Assembly (NCBI GenBank): GCA_001464965.1
Contig: LNEJ01000048.1
Span: 1-63,126, forward strand
Length of the DNA stretch: 63,126 bases
From: Gammaproteobacteria bacterium Ga0074134
GTDB lineage: Bacteria; Pseudomonadota; Gammaproteobacteria; Ga0077554; Ga007554
Reading direction: 5' to 3'
Shown: piece after piece, positions 6,748 through 27,001 of the stretch
How positions within the stretch are numbered: the stretch's first letter is position 1
Layout: each line of letters begins with the position of its first letter
Notes under the pieces: model-generated
What the model saw: only the letters and a program-made list of their open reading frames with translations
Told to the model about the DNA's origin: nothing
Databases searched by the model: none
Translations under genes and position numbers: made by a program

Positions 6748-9192
<2,445 letters not shown>

Positions 9193-9243
9193 CTAAAGCC
9201 GGGGGGTGATTATTGTAACATATTGTTACTGTATAGAATCTGG

Positions 9244-10326
9244 TCAAAAAGCCTGCTCCGTTACCACGCCGTGTTTCACGTGGAACATCTTCCTCCCAAT
9301 TATTTCAGGCGCGGCGATCAATTCTTTGTCGGTTGTAGTGACCATTATTTGTGCATCGAGCCCGCAGAGCAGCGCCATCAATTTTTTGCGGTGCTCTATA
9401 TCCAGCTCGGCGGGCAGGTCATCCACCAAAATAATGCACTGCCGTTGCACACGGGATTTCAGAAGCGCAGCCTGGGCCAGATACATTGCGCATATCAATA
9501 GTTTCTGCTGACCCCCTGATGTGTATTCCTGCGCGGGTTTGCCACCAATTTCTATCATAACATCGGCGCGGTGCGGACCCCTGCTGGTATAGCCTAGCGA
9601 ACGATCTTTTTCCAGCGAACGCGCCAGCACCTCATGGTATTCGGCATCCTGAGCCCATCCGCGCAAATAACGCAATGATAGCCCTTCGATGGGTAGCAGT
9701 TTTTCCGCAAAACCAGCAAATAAAGACGCATAATCCCGCAGGTAGTTGCGCCTGAGCAGGTCTATCCGGCTTGCGCTTTCCTGCAACTCTATACTCCAGA
9801 CATCTTCCGGCATTGAGCGGCCAGAACAGCGCAGTGATGCATTCCTTTGCTTGAGGGCGCGGCAGTAGCGTGCCCAGAGGGGCATAAAGGCATGTTCCAC
9901 GTGGAACACACCCCAATCCATAAAACGGCGGCGCTGCCGTGGACCCAGGGTTAGTATCTTGTGGCTATCAGGGTTAATTAAAAGGAGTGGGAGATGGCTG
10001 ACCAGATCAGACGTGCGCTCCAGTGTTTGGCCCGCCGCACGCATGCGCATTTTTTCCGGCGCATATTCAATGCCCAAGGGAATACGCTGATCAACACCAA
10101 TGTTGACCTGACCGGCTATAGTAAAACCGTCCGTGCCCTTGCTAATGACATTCTGGACATGAGACGAACGAAAAGAGCGTGCCCGCCCCAGCAGGTAAAT
10201 AGCCTCCAGAAGACTTGTTTTTCCGCTGGCGTTAGCGCCGTGAATAATATTCAGGCACGGGGCAGGTTCGATATGAGTCTCGGCAAGATTCCGGACATTT
10301 TTGATATAAAGGGAGGCCAGGCTCAT
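9244..10326 (-). CDS. recF: DNA replication and repair protein RecF
   Basis: A 360-aa SMC-like ATPase that loads RecA at ssDNA gaps with RecOR. Walker A GANASGKTS is at residues 30-38, the ABC-type signature YTSGGQQKLL lies near 270, and Walker B is CIILVDDLPAELD. It sits between dnaN and gyrB in the canonical order. Unusually, two parS palindromes are embedded in the coding sequence; they encode the repeated FHVEH (near residue 142) and FHVKH (near the C-terminus). Confidence 0.96.
   Translation of the reverse strand: MSLASLYIKNVRNLAETHIEPAPCLNIIHGANASGKTSLLEAIYLLGRARSFRSSHVQNVISKGTDGFTIAGQVNIGVDQRIPLGIEYAPEKMRMRAAGQTLERTSDLVSHLPLLLINPDSHKILTLGPRQRRRFMDWGVFHVEHAFMPLWARYCRALKQRNASLRCSGRSMPEDVWSIELQESASRIDLLRRNYLRDYASLFAGFAEKLLPIEGLSLRYLRGWAQDAEYHEVLARSLEKDRSLGYTSRGPHRADVMIEIGGKPAQEYTSGGQQKLLICAMYLAQAALLKSRVQRQCIILVDDLPAELDIEHRKKLMALLCGLDAQIMVTTTDKELIAAPEIIGRKMFHVKHGVVTEQAF
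9272..9287. promoter_or_regulatory. parS: parS centromere site
   Basis: The sequence TGTTTCACGTGGAACA matches the bacterial chromosomal parS consensus at all 16 positions. It lies near the 3' end of recF, about 4 kb from oriC. ParB encoded at about 50 kb would nucleate here to form the segregation complex. Confidence 0.93.
9893..9908. promoter_or_regulatory. parS: second parS centromere site
   Basis: TGTTCCACGTGGAACA is a perfect palindrome and one base from the consensus. It is 606 bp from the first site on the same gene. Pairs of nearby parS sites around the origin are usual for ParABS chromosomes. Confidence 0.92.
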
Positions 10327-12963: not shown

Positions 12964-13032
12964 GGATATAAATCTCCAGAAAGATGGCAATAGGGGACAC
13001 CAAGGACGAAAGTCTATACCTCTTGAGTGAGG

Positions 13033-13041
13033 TTATCCACA
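13033..13041 (+). promoter_or_regulatory. DnaA box (TTATCCACA)
   Basis: A perfect match to the high-affinity DnaA box, 70 bp upstream of the dnaA start codon. It is suitable for both origin function and dnaA autoregulation. Confidence 0.85.
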
Positions 13042-13400
13042 ACCTTGCGGCAGTTTTTTTTAACTTTTTGAAAGAAAAGATAATTTTGTTAATTGTTTGT
13101 TTTAAATAGTTTTTTTAAAATATTTCAGGGTAATTAAAGCGGTAGACTTGACATCTGGCTGTCCAGGTGCGATTTACAATACAACACTATTAATATGGAT
13201 ATTTATATGGTTTCGAAAATATTTCGCAGATGGCAACCCCATTCTTTAATTATCTAAATATTTAAAACCTTATTATTACTATAATTAAGAGCTTCATATT
13301 GCTGTATATGTTTAAAAAAACTTTTATATACATAGTATTGAATTAATCATAAGAAGGCGTAAAACCGCACGTCAAAGTGCCCGGGATCTTGTTGATGCTT

Positions 13401-13409
13401 TGTGGATAA
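13401..13409 (-). promoter_or_regulatory. DnaA box (TTATCCACA, minus strand)
   Basis: TGTGGATAA on the plus strand is the exact complement of the DnaA box. It faces the box at 13436 with 26 bp between them. Confidence 0.85.
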
Positions 13410-13435
13410 CTTTGGTTTATTAAAAACTTAGAAAG

Positions 13436-13444
13436 TTATCCACA
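13436..13444 (+). promoter_or_regulatory. DnaA box (TTATCCACA)
   Basis: The third perfect DnaA box, close to the 3' end of mgtE. Confidence 0.85.
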
Positions 13445-13496
13445 TGTTGTAAACACGAAACAGCTATTCTTCTTAACAGATCAGGCTATCTGTAAA

Positions 13497-14870
13497 TTAG
13501 ATCAAAAACACTGTCGCTAGCCCTAAAAAGGCCATAAATCCAATAACGTCGGTGACGGTGGTCAATACCACGGAACCCGCCAGTGCCGGATCGGCGCCCA
13601 TCCTGCGCAGTAGCAGCGGCAGGGTGGCGCCAACGAGGGCGGCGGTGATGAGGTTAATGGCCATTGCCGCTGCGATGATTGCGCCTATCCTGTAGTCCTT
13701 GTACCAGACGCTGGCGACGACGGCGACGACCGCTGCCCATAGGATGCCGTTCAATGCGCCTACGGCAAGCTCTTTCATCACTACACGCTTGGCGTTCGCG
13801 GCGCCAACACGTCCCAGCGCCATGCCGCGTATCACCAGCGTGATGGTCTGGCTGCCGGCGATGCCGCCCATGCTGGCGACGATGGGCATCAGCACCGCCA
13901 GCGCCACGATCTTTTCGATGGTCGCCTCGAACAAACCGATTACCCAGGAGGCGAGGAAGGCGGTCATCAGATTGATGCCCAGCCATACCGCGCGGCGTTG
14001 CGCGCTGATTACCACGGGGGCGAAGATGTCTTCCTCTTCGCGCAAACCGGCCATGCTCATCAGGGAGTGTTCGGCTTCGTCGCGGATGACGTCCACTACG
14101 TCGTCGATGGTGATGCGGCCCAGCAATTGTCCGGCATCGTTAATCACCGGCGCGGAAATCAGGTCGAGCTGCTCGAACAGGTTCGCTACCTCGCCCGCGG
14201 GCAGAGTGGCCGGGATACCTTCGACATCGCGCATCATGACTTCGGCCACGGCCAGGGAGGGATCTTGTGTCAGCAGATCGGCGAGCGATAGCAGACCGAT
14301 GTATTGGTCGGCGCGGGTCACCACGATCAGGCTGTCTGTCGTCTCGGGGATCTCGCCGCGCCGCCGCAGGTAGCGCAGCACAACATCCAGCGTCACATCC
14401 GGTCGCACCGTGATGGTGTCGGTGTTCATCAGACCACCTGCGGTGTCTTCTGGATAGGAGAGTACCGCCTCCACCCGCTGACGGTCCTGCTCGTCCATGG
14501 ATTGCAGTACGGTCCGGATTACCACGCGTGGCAGGTCTTGCAGAATATCCGCCAGGTCGTCGGTTTCCATGCCTTCGGTGGCTGCTACTAGCTCGTTGGT
14601 GTCCATGAGGCGCAGCAGGGACGCGCGTACTTCGTCACCGATGTGAGACAGCACATCTCCCTCAAGCTCCGCGTCTACCAGCTCCCATGCCAGGGCGCGT
14701 TCGCGGGGAGGCACGGATTCCAGCAAATGTGCGATCTCGGCGGGATGCAGGCTGTTGAGCATCTTGCGGGCGTTCACCAGCGCGCCGCCGCTCTCGAGCG
14801 CGGCGGCCAGCGCAGTGGTGAGGGTTTTCAGGCGCCCCTGGCGTGTTTCCTGTGCGACGGGTTCGGTCAT
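13497..14870 (-). CDS. mgtE: magnesium transporter MgtE
   Basis: A 457-aa Mg2+ channel. The N-terminal superhelical domain (LLESVPPRERALAWELVDAE) is followed by two CBS domains (about residues 140-265) that sense Mg2+. Five membrane helices follow from about residue 290, including the family signature PIVASMGGIAGSQTITLVIRGMALG. The start has GAGGG upstream. It lies between oriC and the Druantia island and is transcribed toward oriC, on the same strand as dnaA. I see no M-box or other riboswitch in its leader. Confidence 0.95.
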   Translation of the reverse strand: MTEPVAQETRQGRLKTLTTALAAALESGGALVNARKMLNSLHPAEIAHLLESVPPRERALAWELVDAELEGDVLSHIGDEVRASLLRLMDTNELVAATEGMETDDLADILQDLPRVVIRTVLQSMDEQDRQRVEAVLSYPEDTAGGLMNTDTITVRPDVTLDVVLRYLRRRGEIPETTDSLIVVTRADQYIGLLSLADLLTQDPSLAVAEVMMRDVEGIPATLPAGEVANLFEQLDLISAPVINDAGQLLGRITIDDVVDVIRDEAEHSLMSMAGLREEEDIFAPVVISAQRRAVWLGINLMTAFLASWVIGLFEATIEKIVALAVLMPIVASMGGIAGSQTITLVIRGMALGRVGAANAKRVVMKELAVGALNGILWAAVVAVVASVWYKDYRIGAIIAAAMAINLITAALVGATLPLLLRRMGADPALAGSVVLTTVTDVIGFMAFLGLATVFLI

Positions 14871-15076
14871 TTCAATCCCTCGATCCTCAGTGACCGTAAG
14901 TGTATGAAAAAGCGGAGGAGATTGGAAAGGCTATTGCAGCCCGGAAGGCTCGCCAATGCAGATCGGAGCTCCGCTTCGGTGCGCCAGCGCGCTCTTAAGT
15001 ATGTGCTTCTTGCCGTCACTTTGGACCTTGTCACGCCATAACATAAGGTAGCCTGAATAAAACGGACGCTCCCGAT

Positions 15077-15085
15077 TGGTATAAT
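15077..15085 (+). promoter_or_regulatory. extended -10 promoter element
   Basis: TGGTATAAT is a perfect extended -10 (TGn plus TATAAT). No good -35 is needed for this class. Transcription would begin near 15092, directly before the AGGAGGT of the small ORF. Confidence 0.5.
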
Positions 15086-15104
15086 CACTTATCAGGAGGT
15101 TGGT

Positions 15105-15182
15105 ATGAAAAAGGGCATAAACTACACTGTACCCACCGGAGTTTCGGGCGGAGGCAGTGAAAATAGTATTGGAATACCCTGA
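15105..15182 (+). CDS. hypothetical 25-aa small protein
   Basis: An ORF of 25 codons plus stop, beginning MKKGINYTVPTG and ending SIGIP. It has a near-ideal ribosome site (AGGAGGT, six bases before ATG) and a perfect extended -10 just upstream. It is too short for family recognition and has no membrane helix. It runs convergent to druE. It could be a real small protein, or the 5' stub of a gene cut off when the island arrived. Codon content alone cannot decide. Confidence 0.4.
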   Translation: MKKGINYTVPTGVSGGGSENSIGIP

Positions 15183-15255
15183 CCAGCATCACCATTTACA
15201 TTGGCCAATTTGACATAATTGTTCAGGTAATGTCCATCTCGTTTGTTTCAGAACG

Positions 15256-18200
15256 TCATTTGTGTCGTATTTTAGCAAACAAGTGTGTGGCAAAGGCTCC
15301 AGACTCTACGTCAATAACCAGTTCGGCGATTCGCATGCCTTGGATGAACAAGTCAGGCTCCTCGAAATCGAAGAATTTTCCACGACTAGCATTGTTAGCT
15401 CTCCAGTAAGAGACCCCTTGATCTAGTCGCACTGTCAGTACATGCGTAGAAGAAAACCGCATCATTAATGTACGACCATGCGGTGACTTTCGTTTATCGA
15501 CGGCACGAATTACTGCGTTCATGCTATTACAATCCAGAGCATGGCAAATTGCCCCATTACGTGATGCCATATCAGTCCAATCGTCCCAAACAACATTTCT
15601 TCTTCGATTGTTTCCGCAAGAAGGTTCATTGGTAGTGGTTATATTTATGGGCGGATTGTCCCAGCGCGCTATTCCAACTGTATCTCGAAGTCCCATGATC
15701 AAATTGACCAATAAGGCAGCGGCAAGGGGGGAGAAGAGATAGCGGTCATGGTATGAAATGCTGATGATATCTGCTGCGGAATCTGACAACAGTGCATTCG
15801 CTGCGGGATGCGACTGGGCAATGAGACTCCAAAACCGCTTGCCGAACCCCTGCAAAGGGCCATCTAATTCGTTACGCACTTCGATCTCTTTGTCACCAAT
15901 ATTTTCGGAACGTGAGCGCAAAGATTGGACAGCAATCCTTTCTCCGCCAATTGCCAGCGGCTCAAGTTTGTCTCCCACAATAAGCGGAGCCTGCCCAATT
16001 CCCCATGTCATGCCAAAAGCCAACGCCGAAACGTCTGAAGTTGTCCATCGGTACGCTTTCCCGTCTTCACGCAGTTCGGCCAGCACCAACGCATCACTAG
16101 CCTTGGGCAGCGTTTTCACAACACTCACCACGATAAGGGATCTTGGATAATCTACAAGGCTGGCAAGAAGTTGGCGATCCATATCCTCAAGTACGTCGTA
16201 ACAGCGCTTCTCAAGTACGATCTCGACCTTTCGATTGCCCGTAGCCAACTGATAGGCCAATGCGCGTAATGGTGAGGGGCCAATGTCCCAGTCATCTGGT
16301 GATCCACCGGCAAAGAGTCGCACCTCTCCGTCGCCTGATTTCCTACCTACTCGCAATACAGCTCCGACAATACCGCCGTACTCGACACGGGAAGATGGCC
16401 CGAAGAACGCCAACTCATCGGGTAGCCGCAGGGATTGTAACCATGTGTCTGTCAATAGTTTTAAAGCCGCGTGGCGATTGAGGTTCTCGGCAGCGAAGCG
16501 TTGATCGAAGTCGAGTACACAGTGAGGGCAGGCGCTATCACAATCCGCCCGGCAGTTGAGGCGATCACGAGCAATACGAAATATTTGGCCCATGAATTGG
16601 CTGGCGTTAGAGGCATAACCCGCTGCGAAACGATCATAGATAAGGATGGAGCGACAGCGAGTTCTGGAGTCCTCGGGACGGGCCTCTTTTTCGTCACAAC
16701 CTAACTCATTTGCTTGCACACCCAGCAGTTCGGCCAGAGAATCACGCAACGCTACGGCCAAGGTCAGCGCTGTTACTCGGTCATTCAGCCAGAGCCCCGA
16801 CTCATTCTTGAGTTGTATCTCCAATACGTCGGTGTAACCCTCATGACCGAGTGTAATACCGGGCTTGATGGCCCACTGCTCGTGGCTGCCCGGACACTCC
16901 TCGCGCCCCTCATTGCTGCCTTTAGTGTTCTTGCCACCGCGCAACTTTTTGTGAGGCGTGAGCTTCGTTGGCGTCGTTTCATCGCTCATGGGTACAGCAC
17001 GACCGCAGACGAGGCAGATGGCGTAGCCCTTATCATGTAAACCTTGGGATTGGTGAAACAGATGTCCTCGTGTAGTGATACGGAATTGGCCAAAATCAGG
17101 ATTAGGTAGCGGTGCCCATTCGCCATTGGCGCTCACCCATGGCGCCTCGACCGGAATAAAATCCTGGGACGTAACGTCGTTATCGGGCTCGTCGTAGAAA
17201 TCGACAGAAAATCCAGCGGGTTCCAAAAATGTGCGTCTGTTCTCCTGCTTTATTTCAGCATTGCACTCTGAACAATGGAGCGCTTCGTTCATGAGTCGTG
17301 ATGATCCGTTGTGGTTACAACGGTCACAGCGCCACGCATATCTGATTGCCTGTACTTCCCTTGCCTCTTGCTCGCTGGCTGGTGCTTTCCAGTTGAGTGT
17401 GATACCAGCAGAACGATAGACCAGTCCATCCATGACCACTTCCGCGCCCGGCGCGTATTCACGTAGTGCCATCACACTATCGCGACTGGCCAGTTCGCGA
17501 CGGCGATAATGATTGTCCTCACGCCCCTTCTTCTCGTCCTCGCGCTTCATCCGTTTGAATTGCGATACGGTGAGGTTGTCAAACGCGGCGATGTGGGTAG
17601 GGAATCCATAAGCAGGCAGAAAACCCTGGGTGGCAAGCTCCCGCAAAAGATACTCACCAGCCATTCGCTCCTTCTGGTATTGAACCGCTTTATGGGCCGG
17701 GTTGCTCTCGCCAGAACCTTTGGTGGCCTCGTCCTGACGATTTAGCGCCTCCCATTCAGGCCGCCAAATCGCAAGTACTTCCTCCATCGCCTTGCCTGCC
17801 TCCCGCACCAATTGCGCCGATTCTCGTCCCTCGTAGAGGCTATGGCGAACCAGTTGGCACAGCCCCCTGACGAGCCGTTCTTCTTGACCATCGAATGTTT
17901 GGCACCACTCGGAAAAACGTTCCGCAGGAGTTAGCCCTTCAGATGCAGTAAAAAACCAGCCACAGGTAAGCTTGGAAGCGTCTTGCCCGCTGGCGGCTAT
18001 TTCTGCCGCCAAAAAGTGGGTAAGCACTAGGGAGTTGACGTGACGCTGGACAATCACCGCGCTATTGAGTGCAACCATTGGGGCGGGTAGTGGGGTAGTG
18101 AAAGGCCAATCGGTCTTCGAGAAGACTATTTGGTCGTGAGGGTTGGATTTACATAAGGTGAGCGAAACTGAACGCGGTTCCTTGCGCCGCCCTGCTCGCC

Positions 18201-21200
18201 CGGCACGCTGAAGATAGCTGGCAGGATGAGGCGGGACGTTGTTCATCGCCACCATCGCGATGCCGCCAATGTCGATCCCCATTTCCATGGTGGTGGAGCA
18301 AGATAGGAGATTCAAGTCTCCGGTCTTGAACGCCTTTTCATAGCGATCAAGGCGATTGGCGGGCTGTTGGGCGGAATGTTCGGCGGCAACGAAATATGGA
18401 GAGAGCTCGATAGCGAAGTCATTGACTATCGGCCATAGTCCTTCTTCCCGTAGCTGACCAATTTCCACTTGCTTATTCAGCCACTCACGGCTGCGTGCCA
18501 TATGGGTCAGCGCGTCGGCATCTCCGCCAAACGGGTCATCGAAGAGAGGAATTTTGACCTGCTGGCATTTCATCGTGGCCTCTGCGTGCTGAAATGGCAA
18601 ATACGGAGTAATGCCACGGAGGGTGGTATCGAGAAAATGGCGGGTAACCGGGCAGACCCAAGCGGTCGTAATAGGTGCAAACGCCATCTGGTTCAGCGGT
18701 AGAATCCTGCGACCGCCGGCTGATGACTGAAGAATCCCGCTCTCATCGGTCAAAGCCTTCCAAGCGGCGGTCAGCGCTGAATCCACCACATCCTCGCTAT
18801 AGGGGGTCGCGATGTTGGCCTTGAGTACATGGGCTAATAACCTCACCAGGGTACTGCGAATATTAGGTTGTTTCTTGCCTTTTTGCAGGACATATTGGGC
18901 ACGGGGCCAGCGTCTTTCCTCCCTCGCTTTTTCCTTGCGATCCTGGTCTACCAACCAAGTTTGTGGAAACGGTATCCCCAGCCAGTGGCGACAGCTCTTC
19001 GATATATCCAGTGAACCGCCCGCGCGAACAAAGAAATCCAGCGCGATTTTCAACAGGCTGCGCCACTCGTCGAGAGTGAAGCCTGGGTGGGGCACGGTGA
19101 TTCTATTTAGCGCAGGATAGTGCACTGCCACCAGCCCCATAGACTCCAGATTATTGAGCCGTTTTGGCCGCCGCCCGAACTCCCTGACCAGAAACATACG
19201 CGCCAAGGCTAACGGCCCCTCCGATCCGCCGAAACTTTCATGCGATACATCATCGCGGTAGTGATGCAGCATGCGCTCGAAGTCCTGCCCCTGATTAGCG
19301 AGTTGACGCGCCATTTCATCTAAGGGAATAGGCGTGGGTTGGGACAAGGCAGTCAGCTGGCCTCGTTTTTTTTCCAATTCTTTTTCAAAGAATCCTCGTC
19401 CTTCTTTCTTCACATGAGCCAGTTGCGCCTCGAAATTTTCGATTTCTTCCTGGAGTTTTTTTGCCTCGACGTCAGACCGTTTCATGCCATCCCGCAATGC
19501 CAGGTGATAGACCAAACCACGCACCCGGTTCCGCTCCGATTCCTGCTGAAGCTTGGCAGCGACGCGGGCAGTTCCTTGACGGCTGTCATTGAAGGTAAGG
19601 AGGCGGCGACCGCGATAGGGGTGATCGGCAGGCTTGTCGCCGTCGGGCGCGAACTCCAGCAACGTCGGCAGAATTACGCCAAGCGAAAACGGCGCGCCGA
19701 TGCGCGCTTCCTGGAAGAGCTTGCGGCGACGAGTGCCATTACTGCCACCGCCGCAGCAGGGGCAAACGAGGCCGTCGCCACCATCATCTTGAACAATCAG
19801 CCGAAGGGTCGTCGTGGCGCCGCCGTCGTCAGCTTCCACATATTGGCGGCTCTGCCGCTGAATCACTTGCTCGCCGGTTTTGTCCAGCGGCCGATTGACT
19901 ATTAGAACCTTTCTCTCTGGACTTTGATGTGCCTCGTCATCGGGCTCTTGCTCCTCCTGATCAACATCCTCTTCGCCAGGTTCTGCCTCCAGTTCGAATT
20001 CATCAATGGCGTTAAAACCACGGGGTTGCAGTAACCTACCGCCGCGATCAGCAGCAAGAAGATGGGGCGCGCCGCAATCGTCACAGGCAACCAGTTCATA
20101 GGCCGGACTACCGCAGCGGCAATGCTGGCGTGGCTCCAGATAGATCTGCCCGAAGGGCCACTTGTCATCCTGCAATTCTGTGCCCGCCTTTTCAGGGCAG
20201 TTGGGATCGGCACAGGCCCAGATCCCGGAGAGGGTTTGATGAAAGAGGTGGGCGCGTAGCGGCAGGAATGAGAAACCATCGGCACTACGGGTAGCGCTCA
20301 GGAGGTCGAGCCAGCAGAGTGCCTCGTGCTGTTGGTCGCGGGTAAAGGGCGTCTCAGTTCGATAGAGCGTTTTGCATACATCGGACAGCCGCACGACCAT
20401 CCCATTGCCGCCCTTTTCCCTGTTCGTTTTTTCGTTCTCAATGAATAGATGGCGCATGGCTCGTGCCGTGGGGTGGGCCGACAGGGCGGTGTAGCGTTCC
20501 GGCGTCGCTTCTTCAGGTTTCTTCTCCGACTCTATTGTCAGCAGCTTGCCCAACGAGCTTTGCCGATCCGGGTCTTCGTCAGGCAGCACAGGAATATGGC
20601 GATGCCCGGCGACGAGATGAACCCGTTCTAGCCCAACCCCGGCCACGTCGGCCAAAAAACGCTTCAGCTTCTCACCCGCTTCACCGTTCGGGTCGCCAAT
20701 GGTGGCCGATGTAGCGACAAAACGCACCTGCTCAGGCTGCACGCCGAAGGCATGGAGCACGCGCCGTATAAGCAGCGCGATCTCTGCGGCCTGTGATCCC
20801 ACATAGGTATGCGCCTCATCCAGTACCACCCATTCCAGCTTGCCTTGGGACTGTTCCAGAATAGGCGCGTCTACAGTGCGTACCAACATGTACTCCAGCA
20901 TGGTGGCGTTGGTAACCAGGATCGGTGGCGGTGACGCGCGCAGCGTTTCTCGATCCATCGCCTCATTGGGATAGTCCCGCTTCTGGTGGGTAGGGAGCTT
21001 ATCCGGTGTATTGCCGTTGAACAGGCAAAATCGAATGTTGTCATCGAAGGCGTGGGTCCATGCCCGTAAGCGTTCCCGCTGGCTATTGATCAGGGCGTTG
21101 AGAGGATAGAGGAAAAGCGCCCGTACCCCGATCAAACGACTATTCTTCTCTGCCTGTAACCGTGCGAGCCGATCGAGGATCGGCACCATGAAGCACTCGG

Positions 21201-21600
21201 TCTTGCCTGAGCCAGTGCCGCTGGCGACCACCAGCGATTGCGGTGTCTCGTTCGCCAAAATCCGCCACGCTTCTAGTTGATGCTTGTAGGGATGACGGTC
21301 TCTGTTGAAGCGATAATCCTCGGCCAATTCTTTGGGTGGCTGATCCATCGCCTGCACCAGCTCCGCTGTCAATAATTGCCCTGCCAGATGGGACATGGTT
21401 TTCTGATCCTCTTCCCAACCGAACACCGCCTCGAAAGTGGGGTCGGCCAGGAAACTTCCCGTCTCGCCGAAGGGACGAGAAAAAAGCTCAGAGAGATGAC
21501 GATACAACGGCACATGCGCAAACCCCAGCCGACTCAATACCGCTGATCGGGAGCGGTCTGCCAATTGGTATAATAGACTGGCAAAATACTGCTGATCCAT
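15256..21600 (-). CDS. druE: Druantia DruE: giant DEAH-box helicase with DUF1998
   Basis: A 2114-aa superfamily 2 helicase. RecA-like domain 1: Walker A ASGTGSGKTE (126-135), DEAH (261-264), SAT (298-300). A long insertion carries Cys clusters (CRCG...CDDCG near 493-510; CPCCGGG near 610). RecA-like domain 2: TTMEMGIDIGG near 1100 and QRAGRAGRR near 1130. A zinc ribbon CDRC...CSEC is near 1424-1446. The DUF1998 signature with ADCDSACPHCVLDF is near 1690. Residues 1750-2114 form an unassigned tail. Size, DUF1998 and a single large partner fit DruE of Druantia type III anti-phage systems. It starts 10 bases after the druH stop, with AGGA in between, so the two are translationally coupled. DISARM and Dpd helicases also carry DUF1998 but have different partners. 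Confidence 0.87.
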   Translation of the reverse strand: MDQQYFASLLYQLADRSRSAVLSRLGFAHVPLYRHLSELFSRPFGETGSFLADPTFEAVFGWEEDQKTMSHLAGQLLTAELVQAMDQPPKELAEDYRFNRDRHPYKHQLEAWRILANETPQSLVVASGTGSGKTECFMVPILDRLARLQAEKNSRLIGVRALFLYPLNALINSQRERLRAWTHAFDDNIRFCLFNGNTPDKLPTHQKRDYPNEAMDRETLRASPPPILVTNATMLEYMLVRTVDAPILEQSQGKLEWVVLDEAHTYVGSQAAEIALLIRRVLHAFGVQPEQVRFVATSATIGDPNGEAGEKLKRFLADVAGVGLERVHLVAGHRHIPVLPDEDPDRQSSLGKLLTIESEKKPEEATPERYTALSAHPTARAMRHLFIENEKTNREKGGNGMVVRLSDVCKTLYRTETPFTRDQQHEALCWLDLLSATRSADGFSFLPLRAHLFHQTLSGIWACADPNCPEKAGTELQDDKWPFGQIYLEPRQHCRCGSPAYELVACDDCGAPHLLAADRGGRLLQPRGFNAIDEFELEAEPGEEDVDQEEQEPDDEAHQSPERKVLIVNRPLDKTGEQVIQRQSRQYVEADDGGATTTLRLIVQDDGGDGLVCPCCGGGSNGTRRRKLFQEARIGAPFSLGVILPTLLEFAPDGDKPADHPYRGRRLLTFNDSRQGTARVAAKLQQESERNRVRGLVYHLALRDGMKRSDVEAKKLQEEIENFEAQLAHVKKEGRGFFEKELEKKRGQLTALSQPTPIPLDEMARQLANQGQDFERMLHHYRDDVSHESFGGSEGPLALARMFLVREFGRRPKRLNNLESMGLVAVHYPALNRITVPHPGFTLDEWRSLLKIALDFFVRAGGSLDISKSCRHWLGIPFPQTWLVDQDRKEKAREERRWPRAQYVLQKGKKQPNIRSTLVRLLAHVLKANIATPYSEDVVDSALTAAWKALTDESGILQSSAGGRRILPLNQMAFAPITTAWVCPVTRHFLDTTLRGITPYLPFQHAEATMKCQQVKIPLFDDPFGGDADALTHMARSREWLNKQVEIGQLREEGLWPIVNDFAIELSPYFVAAEHSAQQPANRLDRYEKAFKTGDLNLLSCSTTMEMGIDIGGIAMVAMNNVPPHPASYLQRAGRAGRRKEPRSVSLTLCKSNPHDQIVFSKTDWPFTTPLPAPMVALNSAVIVQRHVNSLVLTHFLAAEIAASGQDASKLTCGWFFTASEGLTPAERFSEWCQTFDGQEERLVRGLCQLVRHSLYEGRESAQLVREAGKAMEEVLAIWRPEWEALNRQDEATKGSGESNPAHKAVQYQKERMAGEYLLRELATQGFLPAYGFPTHIAAFDNLTVSQFKRMKREDEKKGREDNHYRRRELASRDSVMALREYAPGAEVVMDGLVYRSAGITLNWKAPASEQEAREVQAIRYAWRCDRCNHNGSSRLMNEALHCSECNAEIKQENRRTFLEPAGFSVDFYDEPDNDVTSQDFIPVEAPWVSANGEWAPLPNPDFGQFRITTRGHLFHQSQGLHDKGYAICLVCGRAVPMSDETTPTKLTPHKKLRGGKNTKGSNEGREECPGSHEQWAIKPGITLGHEGYTDVLEIQLKNESGLWLNDRVTALTLAVALRDSLAELLGVQANELGCDEKEARPEDSRTRCRSILIYDRFAAGYASNASQFMGQIFRIARDRLNCRADCDSACPHCVLDFDQRFAAENLNRHAALKLLTDTWLQSLRLPDELAFFGPSSRVEYGGIVGAVLRVGRKSGDGEVRLFAGGSPDDWDIGPSPLRALAYQLATGNRKVEIVLEKRCYDVLEDMDRQLLASLVDYPRSLIVVSVVKTLPKASDALVLAELREDGKAYRWTTSDVSALAFGMTWGIGQAPLIVGDKLEPLAIGGERIAVQSLRSRSENIGDKEIEVRNELDGPLQGFGKRFWSLIAQSHPAANALLSDSAADIISISYHDRYLFSPLAAALLVNLIMGLRDTVGIARWDNPPINITTTNEPSCGNNRRRNVVWDDWTDMASRNGAICHALDCNSMNAVIRAVDKRKSPHGRTLMMRFSSTHVLTVRLDQGVSYWRANNASRGKFFDFEEPDLFIQGMRIAELVIDVESGAFATHLFAKIRHK

Positions 21601-21610
21601 TCCTGAACTC

Positions 21611-24600
21611 CTAAAGTTGCATTACACCGGCAGAGAGGCAGCGGGCAATGGTCAAATCGAATGCCTCTGTAAACCAGTCCGGGTCGAAAGCTTGATATGT
21701 GCGAAGGATGTGGATGCGTTCGGGATGATTGAACCACTCTCCGGTAACATTGGTGGCAACCTGAATCGCCAAGAGGATCGGCAGGCCGATAACTCCATCC
21801 CTGAAGGTAAGACTCTCCTTCGGGAATAGATGCGCGAACGAGCCGTGTTGGCGAGCGTCATTCACCCAAGCAAACAGGCCGGAATCACTGGGCCAGGTTT
21901 CATCGGCATGGTCGCGGAGGAGTCTTTGCAGTGCGCTCTGTTCTCCGACAAAAAGTCGTTGCTGAAAATGCTTGTCGCTTCCTGGGTCGCGCATCATCCG
22001 AATTTCCCTGCAACCGTCCTGCAGAATCACCGACCTTATAATTCCCAATAAATTTCTCAGCGTCGGTTGGTGTCTGGTTAGCTCTATTACTCGCTCAGTC
22101 AAAAAGTCACCGAGTCGCTGTTGAGCAATCTCCTCACCAAACCAAGAGGCGCATTGCTGTTTCAACTGATCTGCGGCTGCAATCCATTCTTTGATGGATA
22201 CCATTTCCCAAATAAAAGGCTGTTCCAGCGGAAACCGTCGCAGAAACCCATCGGGCAAGTTGTGCAACCGTAACCCAAGGGCCGCCATACCCACTGGCGA
22301 GTGAACCAAGCGCCTCCAAAGATCGAGGGCGGCCAATGGCAAATGGCCGAGGTGCTTGACCAGTCGTTCCAGGTCCGCCCAACTCGGATCACAAAAATCG
22401 GCAGCCATAGCCTCGATCACCTGTGACAACGCCGCCGCGCGTTCATCTCTGTTCTCTATTGCGAGCGCTCGCGTCAGTGGACTGGTCGCAGAGGTTTCCC
22501 CTGGGACTATCCACAATGTCGGCCTGAACGGCAGCGCGGAGTCGGCGCCGGGATAGATGAGCCAGGAGCCCGGCTCGCGACTCTCGGCTGCGAATTCCCA
22601 TGCGCCTGTGGGCACTCCTTCCGAGAGTTTTGCCAAAAGCGCAATGGCATCCTCACCCGGTTGATCCAGACGCAGGGCGAACACGGAAAGCTCGCCCAAA
22701 GCTTCTAGTGAAGTCTGCTTCATTTCCTGTATCTTGAGGCTGACGTTATTGCCATCGCGCTGCATGGGACAGACATAGCGTGACACTCGAATACGCAAAG
22801 TTTCTTTGTGATTAAGTGAGAGCGTTACCTCAACCCAGGCATCCAGGAGTTCATCGGCGGCCAACAGTCGCTCGATGTCGTCAACGTAATCCTGAAGGCG
22901 AATGTCGATGCGCAATGAACCAGCGACGGGGCGTATGCGATGACGCGCTTCATGGGCGTTTTGACGATCCTTGGTGTGTCGTAGACAAAAAAATAGTTCC
23001 ACGGGGACATGATGGCGGCTGATTGTGACAAGGCGAATCCCCGCCAGCCGTTGCGCGGATAGCCAAGCATCAGCGGGAAGCTCAGCTCCGTTACAATCGA
23101 AGGCACGAGCGCCTTCGGAAGGGAATGGCAGTCGAATCCGCGCGGGAGTTACATTTCCGTCCCAAACCACCTCGATCTCGATCCACTCAGGAGGAGTCGC
23201 ATCATGTGATGAACAGATTAACGCCATGGAATCACCGTCACGGTTCGTCCGCATATCTATACCGGAGTTTTCCAGCAAGTGCGCGCCCGCTGCTTTCCAG
23301 TGTCGCAAATAGATAGTTCCGCGACTCAGATTCTCGGGCTCAAGATCAACGGTTGCTTCTTTGGGAAGCAATACCATGCGGGCGCGATGCCGCAATTCCT
23401 GGCGCTCTGTATAAGTGACCTCTACTGGCCCGGCAGCAACGTCTTTTGGCACCCGGCTCAGAGAGTGTTCAGAAACGGGGAATTGACTTGTCTCGCTGCG
23501 AATCATCCGAAGGGCTGGTCTTCCTCGAAAAGCCAGAGCCGGGCGCAGGAATTCTGCCCACACTCGATCTCCAGACCACTGGAAACTCTCTTCAGATGCG
23601 TTTGCCTGACCAGTTCGAATCGTCCAGCGATGTCCTAGAGTATCTGTAATGATGACCTCGCCTTTGACTTCATAAACTTCGCGATCTGGCTCTTCGATAA
23701 ATGCCTTGAGAAGACAAGGAGTCTCTGTCCCCATTACCATCTTCCAACCATTGGGTATCGCGACTAGCGCTTCAACCGTTTGCACGCTGCCGCCACCTTG
23801 GCGAATTAATCGAGGCGAATTCTCTTGGGTCTGTTCGAATATCCACGGCAAATCCCGGTCAAGAGGCTCTCCACTACTCAAGGCCGCCGACCAAGATCTG
23901 CCATCTGTTGCGCGAAGAGTGAGTCTGTATTCCTCCATGGCCACCTGACCTGTGAACTGACACGGACGGCGGTCCAGGCGATAACAGTCATGCCCAGCCA
24001 GTCGTCGGGCATTGATTGATAGACGGTGATCTGAGACCTCGATGACGAACTCAACGGTACGCGGAATGTCGTTAGAGTCGGCAATGCCAAAGAGTGTACA
24101 AATAGCTTGACTGGCTAACGTCTCCGGCAGTGCGATGCTCGAACAGAGTCTCCAGATTTCATCGCCCTGTGATTCCAGTGAGCGCTCTACTTTGAGCGAA
24201 CAACCTGAGGGCTTTCCTGAATCGTCTGCCACATCGCGAATCAACTGCTCGATAAGTCCCTGGACTTCACTGTCTTCCACTGGGAGAGGGAATCGCTCAC
24301 GCCAGGAAGGTATTCGTTGATCAAGCTGAGCGATGGCATTCGTGCTTTTCGTGAGATTGGCATCCTTTCTGAGACTGAGCACCGTTGTAATGACATCGGT
24401 CAGGAGGATGTATATCTCTTCTCTCTGGTAACTCTTGGGCAGTTCGTCCTTGAGGCTCTCTATCCAGCCACGAATCTCTCTGAATCCCGCTGTACTTCCT
24501 CGCGCAAGCCCGAGCACACGCCGCAGGACTCGACCGATATTGCCTCTGGCGATAGCAAGGAGCTGCATCGGCAAACCACCCTGGACAGCCACCGAACCGA

Positions 24601-25009
24601 GGTAACGCAGGCCACTGGTTTCTGACAGATTCAGTTTCCACTCCCGTAAACCACGCTCGATGCATTCTCCCCGTTGAGTGGCCGCCCAACTCTCTGCTTG
24701 CGCGCCAATATCCCTCTGGATTGGCTCCCAAGACCATTTCGAACCATCGTATCGGCGACGCCACCATTCGGAAGCGTAAAGAACGAAGAGAGCGCAAAAG
24801 AGAGGGTTTGAGTTGACGATCAACCCCAGGGTTCCAGAATTCGGGTAACCATCGAGTTTGCTGCGCAACGTTGTTTGAAGTGTTGCGTACTGCTCTTCTG
24901 TCAACCGATAGGCATAGAGTGGACGCCCATCAGGAACGAGGAGGCTGTGGCAATCCAGGAGGTGACGCATCCATTGCGACAGCAACGACTCACCCGCATT
25001 GAATGTCAT
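21611..25009 (-). CDS. druH: Druantia type III protein DruH
   Basis: A 1132-aa protein immediately upstream of druE. I see no catalytic motif, membrane segment or signal peptide. The N-terminal 200 residues are helical and basic (QLLAIARGNIGRVLRRVLGLARG), the middle is rich in beta-type segments, and the C-terminal 300 are again helical. Similar proteins are annotated as the STY4851/ECs_5259 family beside giant helicases, and type III Druantia is defined as DruH plus DruE. The assignment therefore rests on size, order and partner. AAAGGGG lies six bases before the ATG. Biochemical function is unknown; a nucleic-acid-binding or sensor role is only inference. Confidence 0.8.
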   Translation of the reverse strand: MTFNAGESLLSQWMRHLLDCHSLLVPDGRPLYAYRLTEEQYATLQTTLRSKLDGYPNSGTLGLIVNSNPLFCALFVLYASEWWRRRYDGSKWSWEPIQRDIGAQAESWAATQRGECIERGLREWKLNLSETSGLRYLGSVAVQGGLPMQLLAIARGNIGRVLRRVLGLARGSTAGFREIRGWIESLKDELPKSYQREEIYILLTDVITTVLSLRKDANLTKSTNAIAQLDQRIPSWRERFPLPVEDSEVQGLIEQLIRDVADDSGKPSGCSLKVERSLESQGDEIWRLCSSIALPETLASQAICTLFGIADSNDIPRTVEFVIEVSDHRLSINARRLAGHDCYRLDRRPCQFTGQVAMEEYRLTLRATDGRSWSAALSSGEPLDRDLPWIFEQTQENSPRLIRQGGGSVQTVEALVAIPNGWKMVMGTETPCLLKAFIEEPDREVYEVKGEVIITDTLGHRWTIRTGQANASEESFQWSGDRVWAEFLRPALAFRGRPALRMIRSETSQFPVSEHSLSRVPKDVAAGPVEVTYTERQELRHRARMVLLPKEATVDLEPENLSRGTIYLRHWKAAGAHLLENSGIDMRTNRDGDSMALICSSHDATPPEWIEIEVVWDGNVTPARIRLPFPSEGARAFDCNGAELPADAWLSAQRLAGIRLVTISRHHVPVELFFCLRHTKDRQNAHEARHRIRPVAGSLRIDIRLQDYVDDIERLLAADELLDAWVEVTLSLNHKETLRIRVSRYVCPMQRDGNNVSLKIQEMKQTSLEALGELSVFALRLDQPGEDAIALLAKLSEGVPTGAWEFAAESREPGSWLIYPGADSALPFRPTLWIVPGETSATSPLTRALAIENRDERAAALSQVIEAMAADFCDPSWADLERLVKHLGHLPLAALDLWRRLVHSPVGMAALGLRLHNLPDGFLRRFPLEQPFIWEMVSIKEWIAAADQLKQQCASWFGEEIAQQRLGDFLTERVIELTRHQPTLRNLLGIIRSVILQDGCREIRMMRDPGSDKHFQQRLFVGEQSALQRLLRDHADETWPSDSGLFAWVNDARQHGSFAHLFPKESLTFRDGVIGLPILLAIQVATNVTGEWFNHPERIHILRTYQAFDPDWFTEAFDLTIARCLSAGVMQL

Positions 25010-25206
25010 GCAAACCCCTTTAACCTCTTGTCTACACTTATCAACAACCCCAATCAGTCTACAGAGACCCCATACGAGATCGAAGTGACAAGGGTTCCAA
25101 ATTGTCCGTTTATTAACCTAAATCCGGCGATTACCCCGCCGAAAGGAAAAAGCGCATAACGCGCGGTTTATTCTAAATAACTGGATGACCTATTTACGAG
25201 TAACTG
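25010..25206. other. 197-bp gap between ptsI and druH
   Basis: On the minus strand this contains the end of the PTS unit (weak terminator, separate entry) and the druH leader. I could not identify a convincing sigma-70 promoter for druH. It is AT-richer than its surroundings. It forms the right boundary of the defence island. Confidence 0.45.
25147..25164 (-). terminator. weak intrinsic terminator after ptsI
   Basis: On the minus strand GCGCG-TTA-TGCGC (one G-U pair) is followed by TTTTT. The stem is only five pairs. It would separate the PTS operon from druH. Confidence 0.4.
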
Positions 25207-26952
25207 CTACATTTCGATAGCGTTGATTTTTCCGATCAGCATGCGAATTTCCTCGGCATCGCTGCATTTCAGCACCTTGCGTGCCATTTTGGTTAATTCC
25301 GTCAAGCGGCTGGAGTGGATGATGCTCTTTATTTCCAGCAGCATGGAAGGATGCATGCTGAACTCGTTCAATCCCATGCCAAGTAGCAAGCGGGTGTAGC
25401 GCACGTCACCCGCCATCTCGCCGCACATCGCCACTGGGATGCCGATGTCGCGTCCGGCACGGAGGGTCATGTCGATCAAGCGCAGCACGGCGGGGTGGAG
25501 CGGGTCATAGATATAATTAACCGCCTCGTTGGTCCGGTCGGTGGCAAGGGTGTACTGAATCAGATCATTGGTGCCGATGGAGAGAAAGTCCAGGTGGCGG
25601 GCCAGGCTTTCGGCGATGAGAGCGGCGGCAGGCACCTCGATCATAGCGCCCACGCGCATGTTTTCATTGTATTTGAGGCCTTGCCCTTTCAGTTCATTTT
25701 TCACATCTTGCACAAGCTGTAATACCTGGAGCAGCTCCGGCAGGCTCGATAGCATGGGGATCATCATGCGCACCCGCCCATACGCTGAGGCGCGCAGGAT
25801 GGCGCGCAGTTGCGGGCGGAACAGGGACGGTTCTTTCAGGCACAGGCGTATCGCCCGCAGTCCCAGCGCGGAATGCGTGGTGGATGGGGCTATTTGTTGT
25901 CTGCCGCCCGGCATCTTGTCGGCACCAAGATCAAGGGTGCGGATGGTAACGGGCGCCCCTCGCGCGGCCCGCGCGATGCTCACATAAGCGCGGAGCTGCT
26001 CTTCTTCGTCAGGGATGTTCGGCCGGTTCATAAAAAGAAATTCGGTGCGGTATAAGCCTACGCCTGCCGCCGCCGTGCGCTTGATAGCCTGGGTATCCTC
26101 GGGTAACTCAACATTGGCGCGCAATGTAATCGACCAGCCGTCACGCGTTACCGCAGGCTGTTTTTTGAATCTGGAAAGTGCCGCAAGGTGACGTTTATCT
26201 TCCCGCTGTTTGCTGCGGAAATAACGCATTGATTTCGCATCGGAGTCCACCAGTACAGTCCCTTGCTGGCCATCCATGATCAGTCGAGAGCCGGGGGGTA
26301 TATTGCGCCGCGCGTGTGCGACTCCAATGATGGCGGGGATGCCCAGGCTACGGGCCAGGATGGTGGTGTGGGAGGTGGGGCCGCCTGCTTCGGTAATAAA
26401 TGCGGCAACGCCCTGATGCTGCATCAAGAGCAGATCCGCCGGGGAGATATCCCCGGTAACAATGATGACGCCCTTTAACCGGTCATCGGAAAATTCCAGA
26501 GGATGGGCGGGCTGGTTAAGCAGAATGCGTTGAATACGGTTGACGACATGATCCACGTCATCCTTGCGTGTGCGCAGGTAGGGGTCATCCATGGCTTCGA
26601 ATACGCTTACCAGGATGTCGCGCTGCTGCTTGAGCGCCCACTCGGCATTGCACCGCTGGGTTTTAATCAGTTTCACTGGCGCATCCGTCAATGCGCTATC
26701 TTCGAGCATCAACACATGGGTTTCAATAAAGGCGGCAATGTCCGCCGGGGTGCCGCGCGGAATCTGCTTGCGTATCGCGCTGAGCTGTTGCCTGGCGGTG
26801 TCCAGTGCGGCCTTGAAGCGCGTTACCTCGTCAGCGACGAGATGTTCCGGCAGGGCATATTCGATGATTTCGGGTGCTTCAGGCTGTAACAGATAGGCAT
26901 TGCCTATCGCAATACCTCTGGATACCCCCACCCCTGTCAGCGTCAATCCCAT
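25207..26952 (-). CDS. ptsI: phosphoenolpyruvate-protein phosphotransferase (enzyme I)
   Basis: A 581-aa enzyme I that moves phosphate from PEP to HPr. The N-terminal His domain has GGPTSHTTILARSLGIPAIIG (phospho-His). The PEP-binding barrel shows LYRTEFLFMNR, GAMIEVPAAAL, GTNDLIQYTLATDR and CGEMAGD (catalytic Cys). No GAF domain is present, so it is PtsI-type rather than PtsP. The start is taken at 26952 (MGLTLTGVGVSRG); an ATG at 26964 is also in frame. It is the last gene of the regulatory PTS run. No sugar EIIBC is near. Confidence 0.94.
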   Translation of the reverse strand: MGLTLTGVGVSRGIAIGNAYLLQPEAPEIIEYALPEHLVADEVTRFKAALDTARQQLSAIRKQIPRGTPADIAAFIETHVLMLEDSALTDAPVKLIKTQRCNAEWALKQQRDILVSVFEAMDDPYLRTRKDDVDHVVNRIQRILLNQPAHPLEFSDDRLKGVIIVTGDISPADLLLMQHQGVAAFITEAGGPTSHTTILARSLGIPAIIGVAHARRNIPPGSRLIMDGQQGTVLVDSDAKSMRYFRSKQREDKRHLAALSRFKKQPAVTRDGWSITLRANVELPEDTQAIKRTAAAGVGLYRTEFLFMNRPNIPDEEEQLRAYVSIARAARGAPVTIRTLDLGADKMPGGRQQIAPSTTHSALGLRAIRLCLKEPSLFRPQLRAILRASAYGRVRMMIPMLSSLPELLQVLQLVQDVKNELKGQGLKYNENMRVGAMIEVPAAALIAESLARHLDFLSIGTNDLIQYTLATDRTNEAVNYIYDPLHPAVLRLIDMTLRAGRDIGIPVAMCGEMAGDVRYTRLLLGMGLNEFSMHPSMLLEIKSIIHSSRLTELTKMARKVLKCSDAEEIRMLIGKINAIEM

Positions 26953-27001
26953 GATCGCAAGCATACCCAGTTAAAATTTGAAACCGCGCCTATCCGGACG
27001 A

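What the first reader, a model, noticed from the sequence alone, without database searches (positions are those of the whole stretch)
15256..25009. Druantia type III defence system placed next to the replication origin
A 1132-aa protein is followed, 10 bases later, by a 2114-aa DEAH helicase with DUF1998 and several Cys clusters. This two-gene order and these sizes match DruH-DruE. It sits about 2 kb from oriC, between mgtE and ptsI, within a core region. No integrase or attachment repeat is visible, so how it arrived is unclear. DruH has no recognisable catalytic motif.
Basis: partly seen in the sequence, partly recalled or inferred. Interest (0 to 1): 0.7.

Follow-up and report, generated by a model that had tools for sequence, protein, structure and literature searches.

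The report
Ordinary Druantia III beside the origin
Two bacterial genes next to the chromosome's replication start form a complete, already described anti-virus system (Druantia type III) that was inserted as one block between two housekeeping genes; the system is known and only its exact landing site is new.

Summary
Window 21611-25009 (-) encodes an 1132-aa DruH and 15256-21600 (-) a 2114-aa DruE, 10 bases apart. Type-III profiles from PADLOC hit both over nearly full length (DruE3 2363 bits; DruH3 433 bits), far above DISARM or Dpd models (94 bits or less), and NCBIfam calls DruH YjiT_fam (778 bits). The best solved-structure matches are DruE (9tu7) and DruH (9tud). Walker A, DEAH, motif VI, Zn-binding cysteines and the C-terminal PLD-type motifs are intact. 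[quoted passage not shown]

New here is how it sits. In relatives ptsI and mgtE are adjacent; two congeners show the empty site. The block (about 10.2 kb) lies between two copies of CCTTTC, single in the empty site, and a truncated IS3-family end lies beside druE. An 86% identical druHE in another gammaproteobacterium has unrelated flanks, so only the two genes are shared. No other window gene tested against PADLOC is a defence gene. The host genome has no detectable RecD, on which E. coli Druantia III depends. New member of a known kind; low interest.

The parts
21611..25009 (-). druH (Druantia type III, YjiT/STY4851 family), 1132 aa, first gene of the pair
   Evidence: PADLOC DruH3 models up to 433 bits over residues 114-1124; NF038336 YjiT_fam 778 bits, cut-off 150, residues 13-1121; PDB 9tud DruH E=2e-32; 9 of 14 loss-of-function residues of the DruH N-terminal surface conserved
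15256..21600 (-). druE (Druantia type III, YprA-family SF2 helicase with C-terminal PLD-type region), 2114 aa, second gene
   Evidence: PADLOC DruE3 PDLC00037 2363 bits over residues 2-2110; PDB 9tu7 DruE 1164 bits; motifs
15044..15174 (+). relic of the 5' end of an IS3-family element (terminal repeat plus start of orfA, frameshifted)
   Evidence: 74% identical to the start of an intact IS3-like element (orfA plus orfB) in family relative G006; peptide YPPEFRAEAVKIVLE resembles annotated IS3-family transposases (weak E-values)
25141..25146 (-). CCTTTC, left copy of the 6-bp repeat bounding the insert
   Evidence: single copy in empty sites of G002 and G003
14925..14930 (-). CCTTTC, right copy of the 6-bp repeat bounding the insert
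25207..26964 (-). ptsI, left flank of the insertion
   Evidence: Pfam and NCBIfam; adjacent to mgtE in relatives
13497..14870 (-). mgtE, right flank of the insertion
   Evidence: Pfam and NCBIfam; 97% identical in congeners
12991..13496 (.). oriC region with three perfect DnaA boxes
   Evidence: low G+C

Best explanation
The pair is a complete, apparently functional Druantia type III anti-phage system acquired by horizontal transfer as a two-gene block and inserted between ptsI and mgtE. By homology, DruH senses a late phage structural protein and nicks or helps to expose phage DNA, and DruE loads on 3' single-stranded DNA of phage replication intermediates, assembles along it and cleaves it with its C-terminal PLD domain. 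Shown here: identity, intact motifs, empty site in relatives, 6-bp repeat at the junctions, IS3-family relic, sharing of only the two genes with a distant genome. Inferred: anti-phage activity in this host, the trigger, and transposition-like insertion as the cause of the repeat.
For: Full-length type-III profile hits for both proteins, YjiT_fam, direct homology to the DruE and DruH cryo-EM chains. Walker A at 127, DEAH at 261, SAT at 298, motif VI at 1131, CxxC pairs, PLD-type HDRYLFSP at 1951 and HGR...LDQGVSYW at 2041-2066. ptsI-mgtE adjacent in family members G002-G007, not in G001 where rsmB precedes mgtE. CCTTTC single in empty sites and present at both block ends. 86% identical druHE in a gammaproteobacterial MAG, where homology covers druHE only (window 24976-15187). 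Only 4 of 185 relatives, own genome included, hold a DruH. Mechanism: PMC13192584 and PMC13316683.
Against: No experiment in this host. RecD, on which E. coli Druantia III depends, is not detectable in the genome, so the coupling to host DNA processing must differ or be dispensable. The 6-bp repeat could also reflect illegitimate recombination at a short match instead of transposition. The two 2026 papers disagree on whether DruH and DruE form a stable complex.
Confidence: 0.95

Rival explanations
1. A DISARM, Dpd or other YprA-family system (ARMADA, BRIGADE, type III-like) rather than canonical Druantia III.
For: The helicase belongs to the YprA family shared by all of these; weak hits to DpdJ and DrmA.
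Against: DruE3 2363 bits against DpdJ 94 and DrmA 45 bits; the partner is DruH, specific to type III; no DrmB/DrmC or Dpd partners; C-terminal PLD-type region as in canonical type III (PMC12458937).
Confidence: 0.02
2. A decayed remnant of Druantia III, intact in frame but no longer functional.
For: It is isolated, beside an IS relic, and the host has no detectable RecD.
Against: No stops over 3246 codons, motifs intact, purifying selection against L035 (dN/dS 0.24 and 0.14).
Confidence: 0.08
3. The block was brought in by an integrative element (SPIDER-like or prophage), since lost.
For: In E. coli cluster 11 the system often rides on SPIDER elements (PMC13192584). A stretch of 131 bp before druH and about 115 bp next to mgtE are of unknown origin.
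Against: No integrase, long att-like repeat or other cargo; the insert is bounded by only 6 bp; no DruH homologue in 50,697 phage records.
Confidence: 0.15

Closest known systems
Druantia type III of E. coli (DruH-DruE; PDB 9tu7-9tud, PMC13192584)
   Same: Gene content, sizes (chains of 1119 and 2108 aa there), near full-length homology, helicase motifs, Zn module, PLD-type C-terminus, most of the DruH N-terminal functional surface
   Different: Distant DruH (phmmer 115 bits only); no other defence gene found among the window genes tested; host lacks detectable RecD; inserted between core genes instead of in a defence island
Druantia type III of Mycolicibacterium smegmatis (PMC13316683)
   Same: Two-gene DruH-DruE with SF2 helicase and DUF1998
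   Different: The M. smegmatis DruE is shorter (1667 aa) and said to lack a canonical nuclease domain
druHE of Gammaproteobacteria MAG nzgw582 (locus L035, JAHFRV010000007.1)
   Same: 86% nucleotide identity over the whole pair, same 10-base spacing
   Different: Unrelated flanking genes, so a different site

Membership tests
Druantia type III | DruE, a YprA-family SF2 helicase of about 2000 aa matching type-III profiles | tested here: met
   PDLC00037 2363 bits, full length
Druantia type III | DruH partner, absent from other Druantia types | tested here: met
   DruH3 models up to 433 bits and YjiT_fam 778 bits
Druantia type III | Adjacent co-directional druH-druE genes | tested here: met
   10 bases apart, same strand
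Druantia type III | Two C-terminal PLD-like domains, the last active | tested here: inconclusive
   Region aligns with the solved DruE C-terminus; HDRYLFSP and HGR/LDQGVSYW motifs shared; domain boundaries not modelled and activity not assayed
Druantia type III | Anti-phage activity | not testable with these tools
   needs phage challenge
DISARM | DrmA and DrmB encoded separately with a DrmC PLD nuclease | tested here: not met
   helicase and Zn module are one protein; DrmA only 45 bits
Dpd (7-deazapurine) system | Dpd modification genes with a DpdJ-type helicase | tested here: not met
   DpdJ 94 bits in PADLOC, and 82 bits against a cut-off of 800 in NCBIfam; flanks are ptsI and mgtE

The most novel reading that the evidence does not exclude
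This Druantia III works in a host without RecD, so its coupling to host DNA processing differs from the RecD-sensitive E. coli system (for example through an AddAB-like or RecBCD-independent route).
Probability: 0.25. Interest if true: 0.35.

Novelty: new member of a known kind. Interest (0 to 1): 0.18.

Why it matters
It adds a well-delimited case of Druantia III moving as a bare two-gene block into a core gene cluster near oriC, with the empty site in relatives, and a host in which the proposed RecD dependence of the system can be tested. Nothing about the mechanism is new.

Tried and rejected
Inverted repeats between the two insert ends: TTTGGA(AC)CCTTGTCAC is shared, but 2 of 500 shuffles reach its score, and its order relative to the IS-end-like sequence differs on the two sides; not counted as ends of an element. 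A second IS end beside druH (AATAAACGGACA) matches the IS3-type end only at about chance level. Pfam found no transposase in the 28-aa relic peptide, which is too short; the IS3 assignment rests on the DNA match to an intact element. No long IS relative in plasmids. Ten other window genes tested against PADLOC gave nothing. Foreign base composition: G+C 54-55% against 50-63% in neighbours, uninformative. Structure prediction was skipped because solved homologues exist.

Full report
Observation. Two adjacent ORFs on the - strand, 21611-25009 (1132 aa) and 15256-21600 (2114 aa), are separated by 10 bases. Their neighbours are ptsI (25207-26964) and mgtE (13497-14870), followed by dnaA, dnaN, recF and gyrB. 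Three perfect DnaA boxes at 13033, 13401 and 13436 mark oriC between dnaA and mgtE. The druE end is about 1.8 kb away. The stated coordinates, order, sizes and setting are all correct.

Identity. PADLOC profiles give DruE3 at 2363 bits over residues 2-2110 and DruH3 at up to 433 bits over residues 114-1124. DpdJ reaches 94 bits and DrmA 45. NCBIfam assigns DruH to YjiT_fam (STY4851/ECs_5259) with 778 bits against a cut-off of 150. The best solved-structure matches are DruE (9tu7 and five further entries) and DruH (9tud). Walker A (127), DEAH (261), SAT (298), motif VI (1131), paired CxxC clusters and the C-terminal PLD-type motifs HDRYLFSP and HGR...LDQGVSYW are present and aligned to the solved DruE. 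Of 14 DruH N-terminal residues whose substitution abolished defence in the E. coli system (in several cases as double or triple mutants), 9 are identical here: F69, E75, R78, R79, W88, W115, L129, G136 and G137.

How it works. The mechanism is taken from two papers. In E. coli (PMC13192584) DruH is the likely sensor of late phage structural proteins, with a nuclease activity that rises on dimerisation. DruE is a dimeric helicase that loads on 3' single-stranded DNA, assembles on long ssDNA and cleaves it. In M. smegmatis (PMC13316683) a minor tail protein triggers the system, DruH-DruE interaction is needed, and phage DNA circularisation and replication are blocked. The papers disagree on a stable DruH-DruE complex. 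For the window's pair all of this is inference from homology.

How it arrived. In family members G002-G007 ptsI is directly followed by mgtE; G002 and G003 (same genus, mgtE 97% identical) give the empty site. In G001 mgtE is preceded by rsmB instead (named from its sequence), so this slot has changed more than once. Comparison with the empty site places the ends of the block at CCTTTC, present once there (TTTTTCCTTTCCAATC) and at both ends here (25141-25146 and 14925-14930). A 6-bp overlap at a random junction is unlikely; it fits a target-site duplication, or recombination at a short match. Beside druE, 15044-15174 is 74% identical to the 5' end of an intact IS3-like element in family relative G006. 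It is truncated and frameshifted. Copies of the same end occur at two other places in the genome. Whether this element carried druHE cannot be said.

Distribution. DruH occurs in 4 of 185 relatives, the own genome included, the others at 25-27% identity. One MAG, nzgw582, holds an 86% identical pair; homology spans window 24976-15187 and stops near the gene edges. dN/dS is 0.24 (DruH) and 0.14 (DruE): both are kept, and DruH changes faster relative to its silent sites, as published for the family. Plasmids hold distant DruH homologues (19 records, none above 60% identity); phage records hold none.

Host context. TIGR01447 (recD) finds nothing in the own genome at E <= 0.001, while 10 of 14 control genomes ring. 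PDDEXK_1 finds three places, so an AddAB-like enzyme is possible but was not identified. E. coli Druantia III is sensitive to loss of RecD (PMC13192584), so that dependence cannot carry over unchanged. This is the only point that goes beyond a routine member, and it is untested. The genome is in 80 contigs with an estimated completeness of 100%.

Verdict. This is a canonical Druantia type III pair, a new member of a known kind, with a cleanly defined insertion. Interest is low.

Noticed in passing
L047 (G001:C45) 13556-16233: In a congener rsmB directly precedes mgtE in place of ptsI: the slot next to mgtE has been rearranged independently.
   Followed up: partly
L041 (G002:C42) 7506-9618: About 2.1 kb separate mgtE and dnaA in this congener, against about 0.5 kb in the window and in G003: extra DNA at or near oriC.
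   Followed up: no
L040 (G003) 8449-8504: ptsI of this congener aligns in two overlapping pieces in different frames, possibly a frameshift or a sequencing error.
   Followed up: no
G000:C4:85529 and G000:C77:1882: Two further copies of the IS3-type end TGAATAAAACGGACNCTC, each followed by unrelated sequence.
   Followed up: partly
whole genome G000: No RecD or RecD2 detected with TIGR01447, though 10 of 14 control genomes ring.
   Followed up: partly
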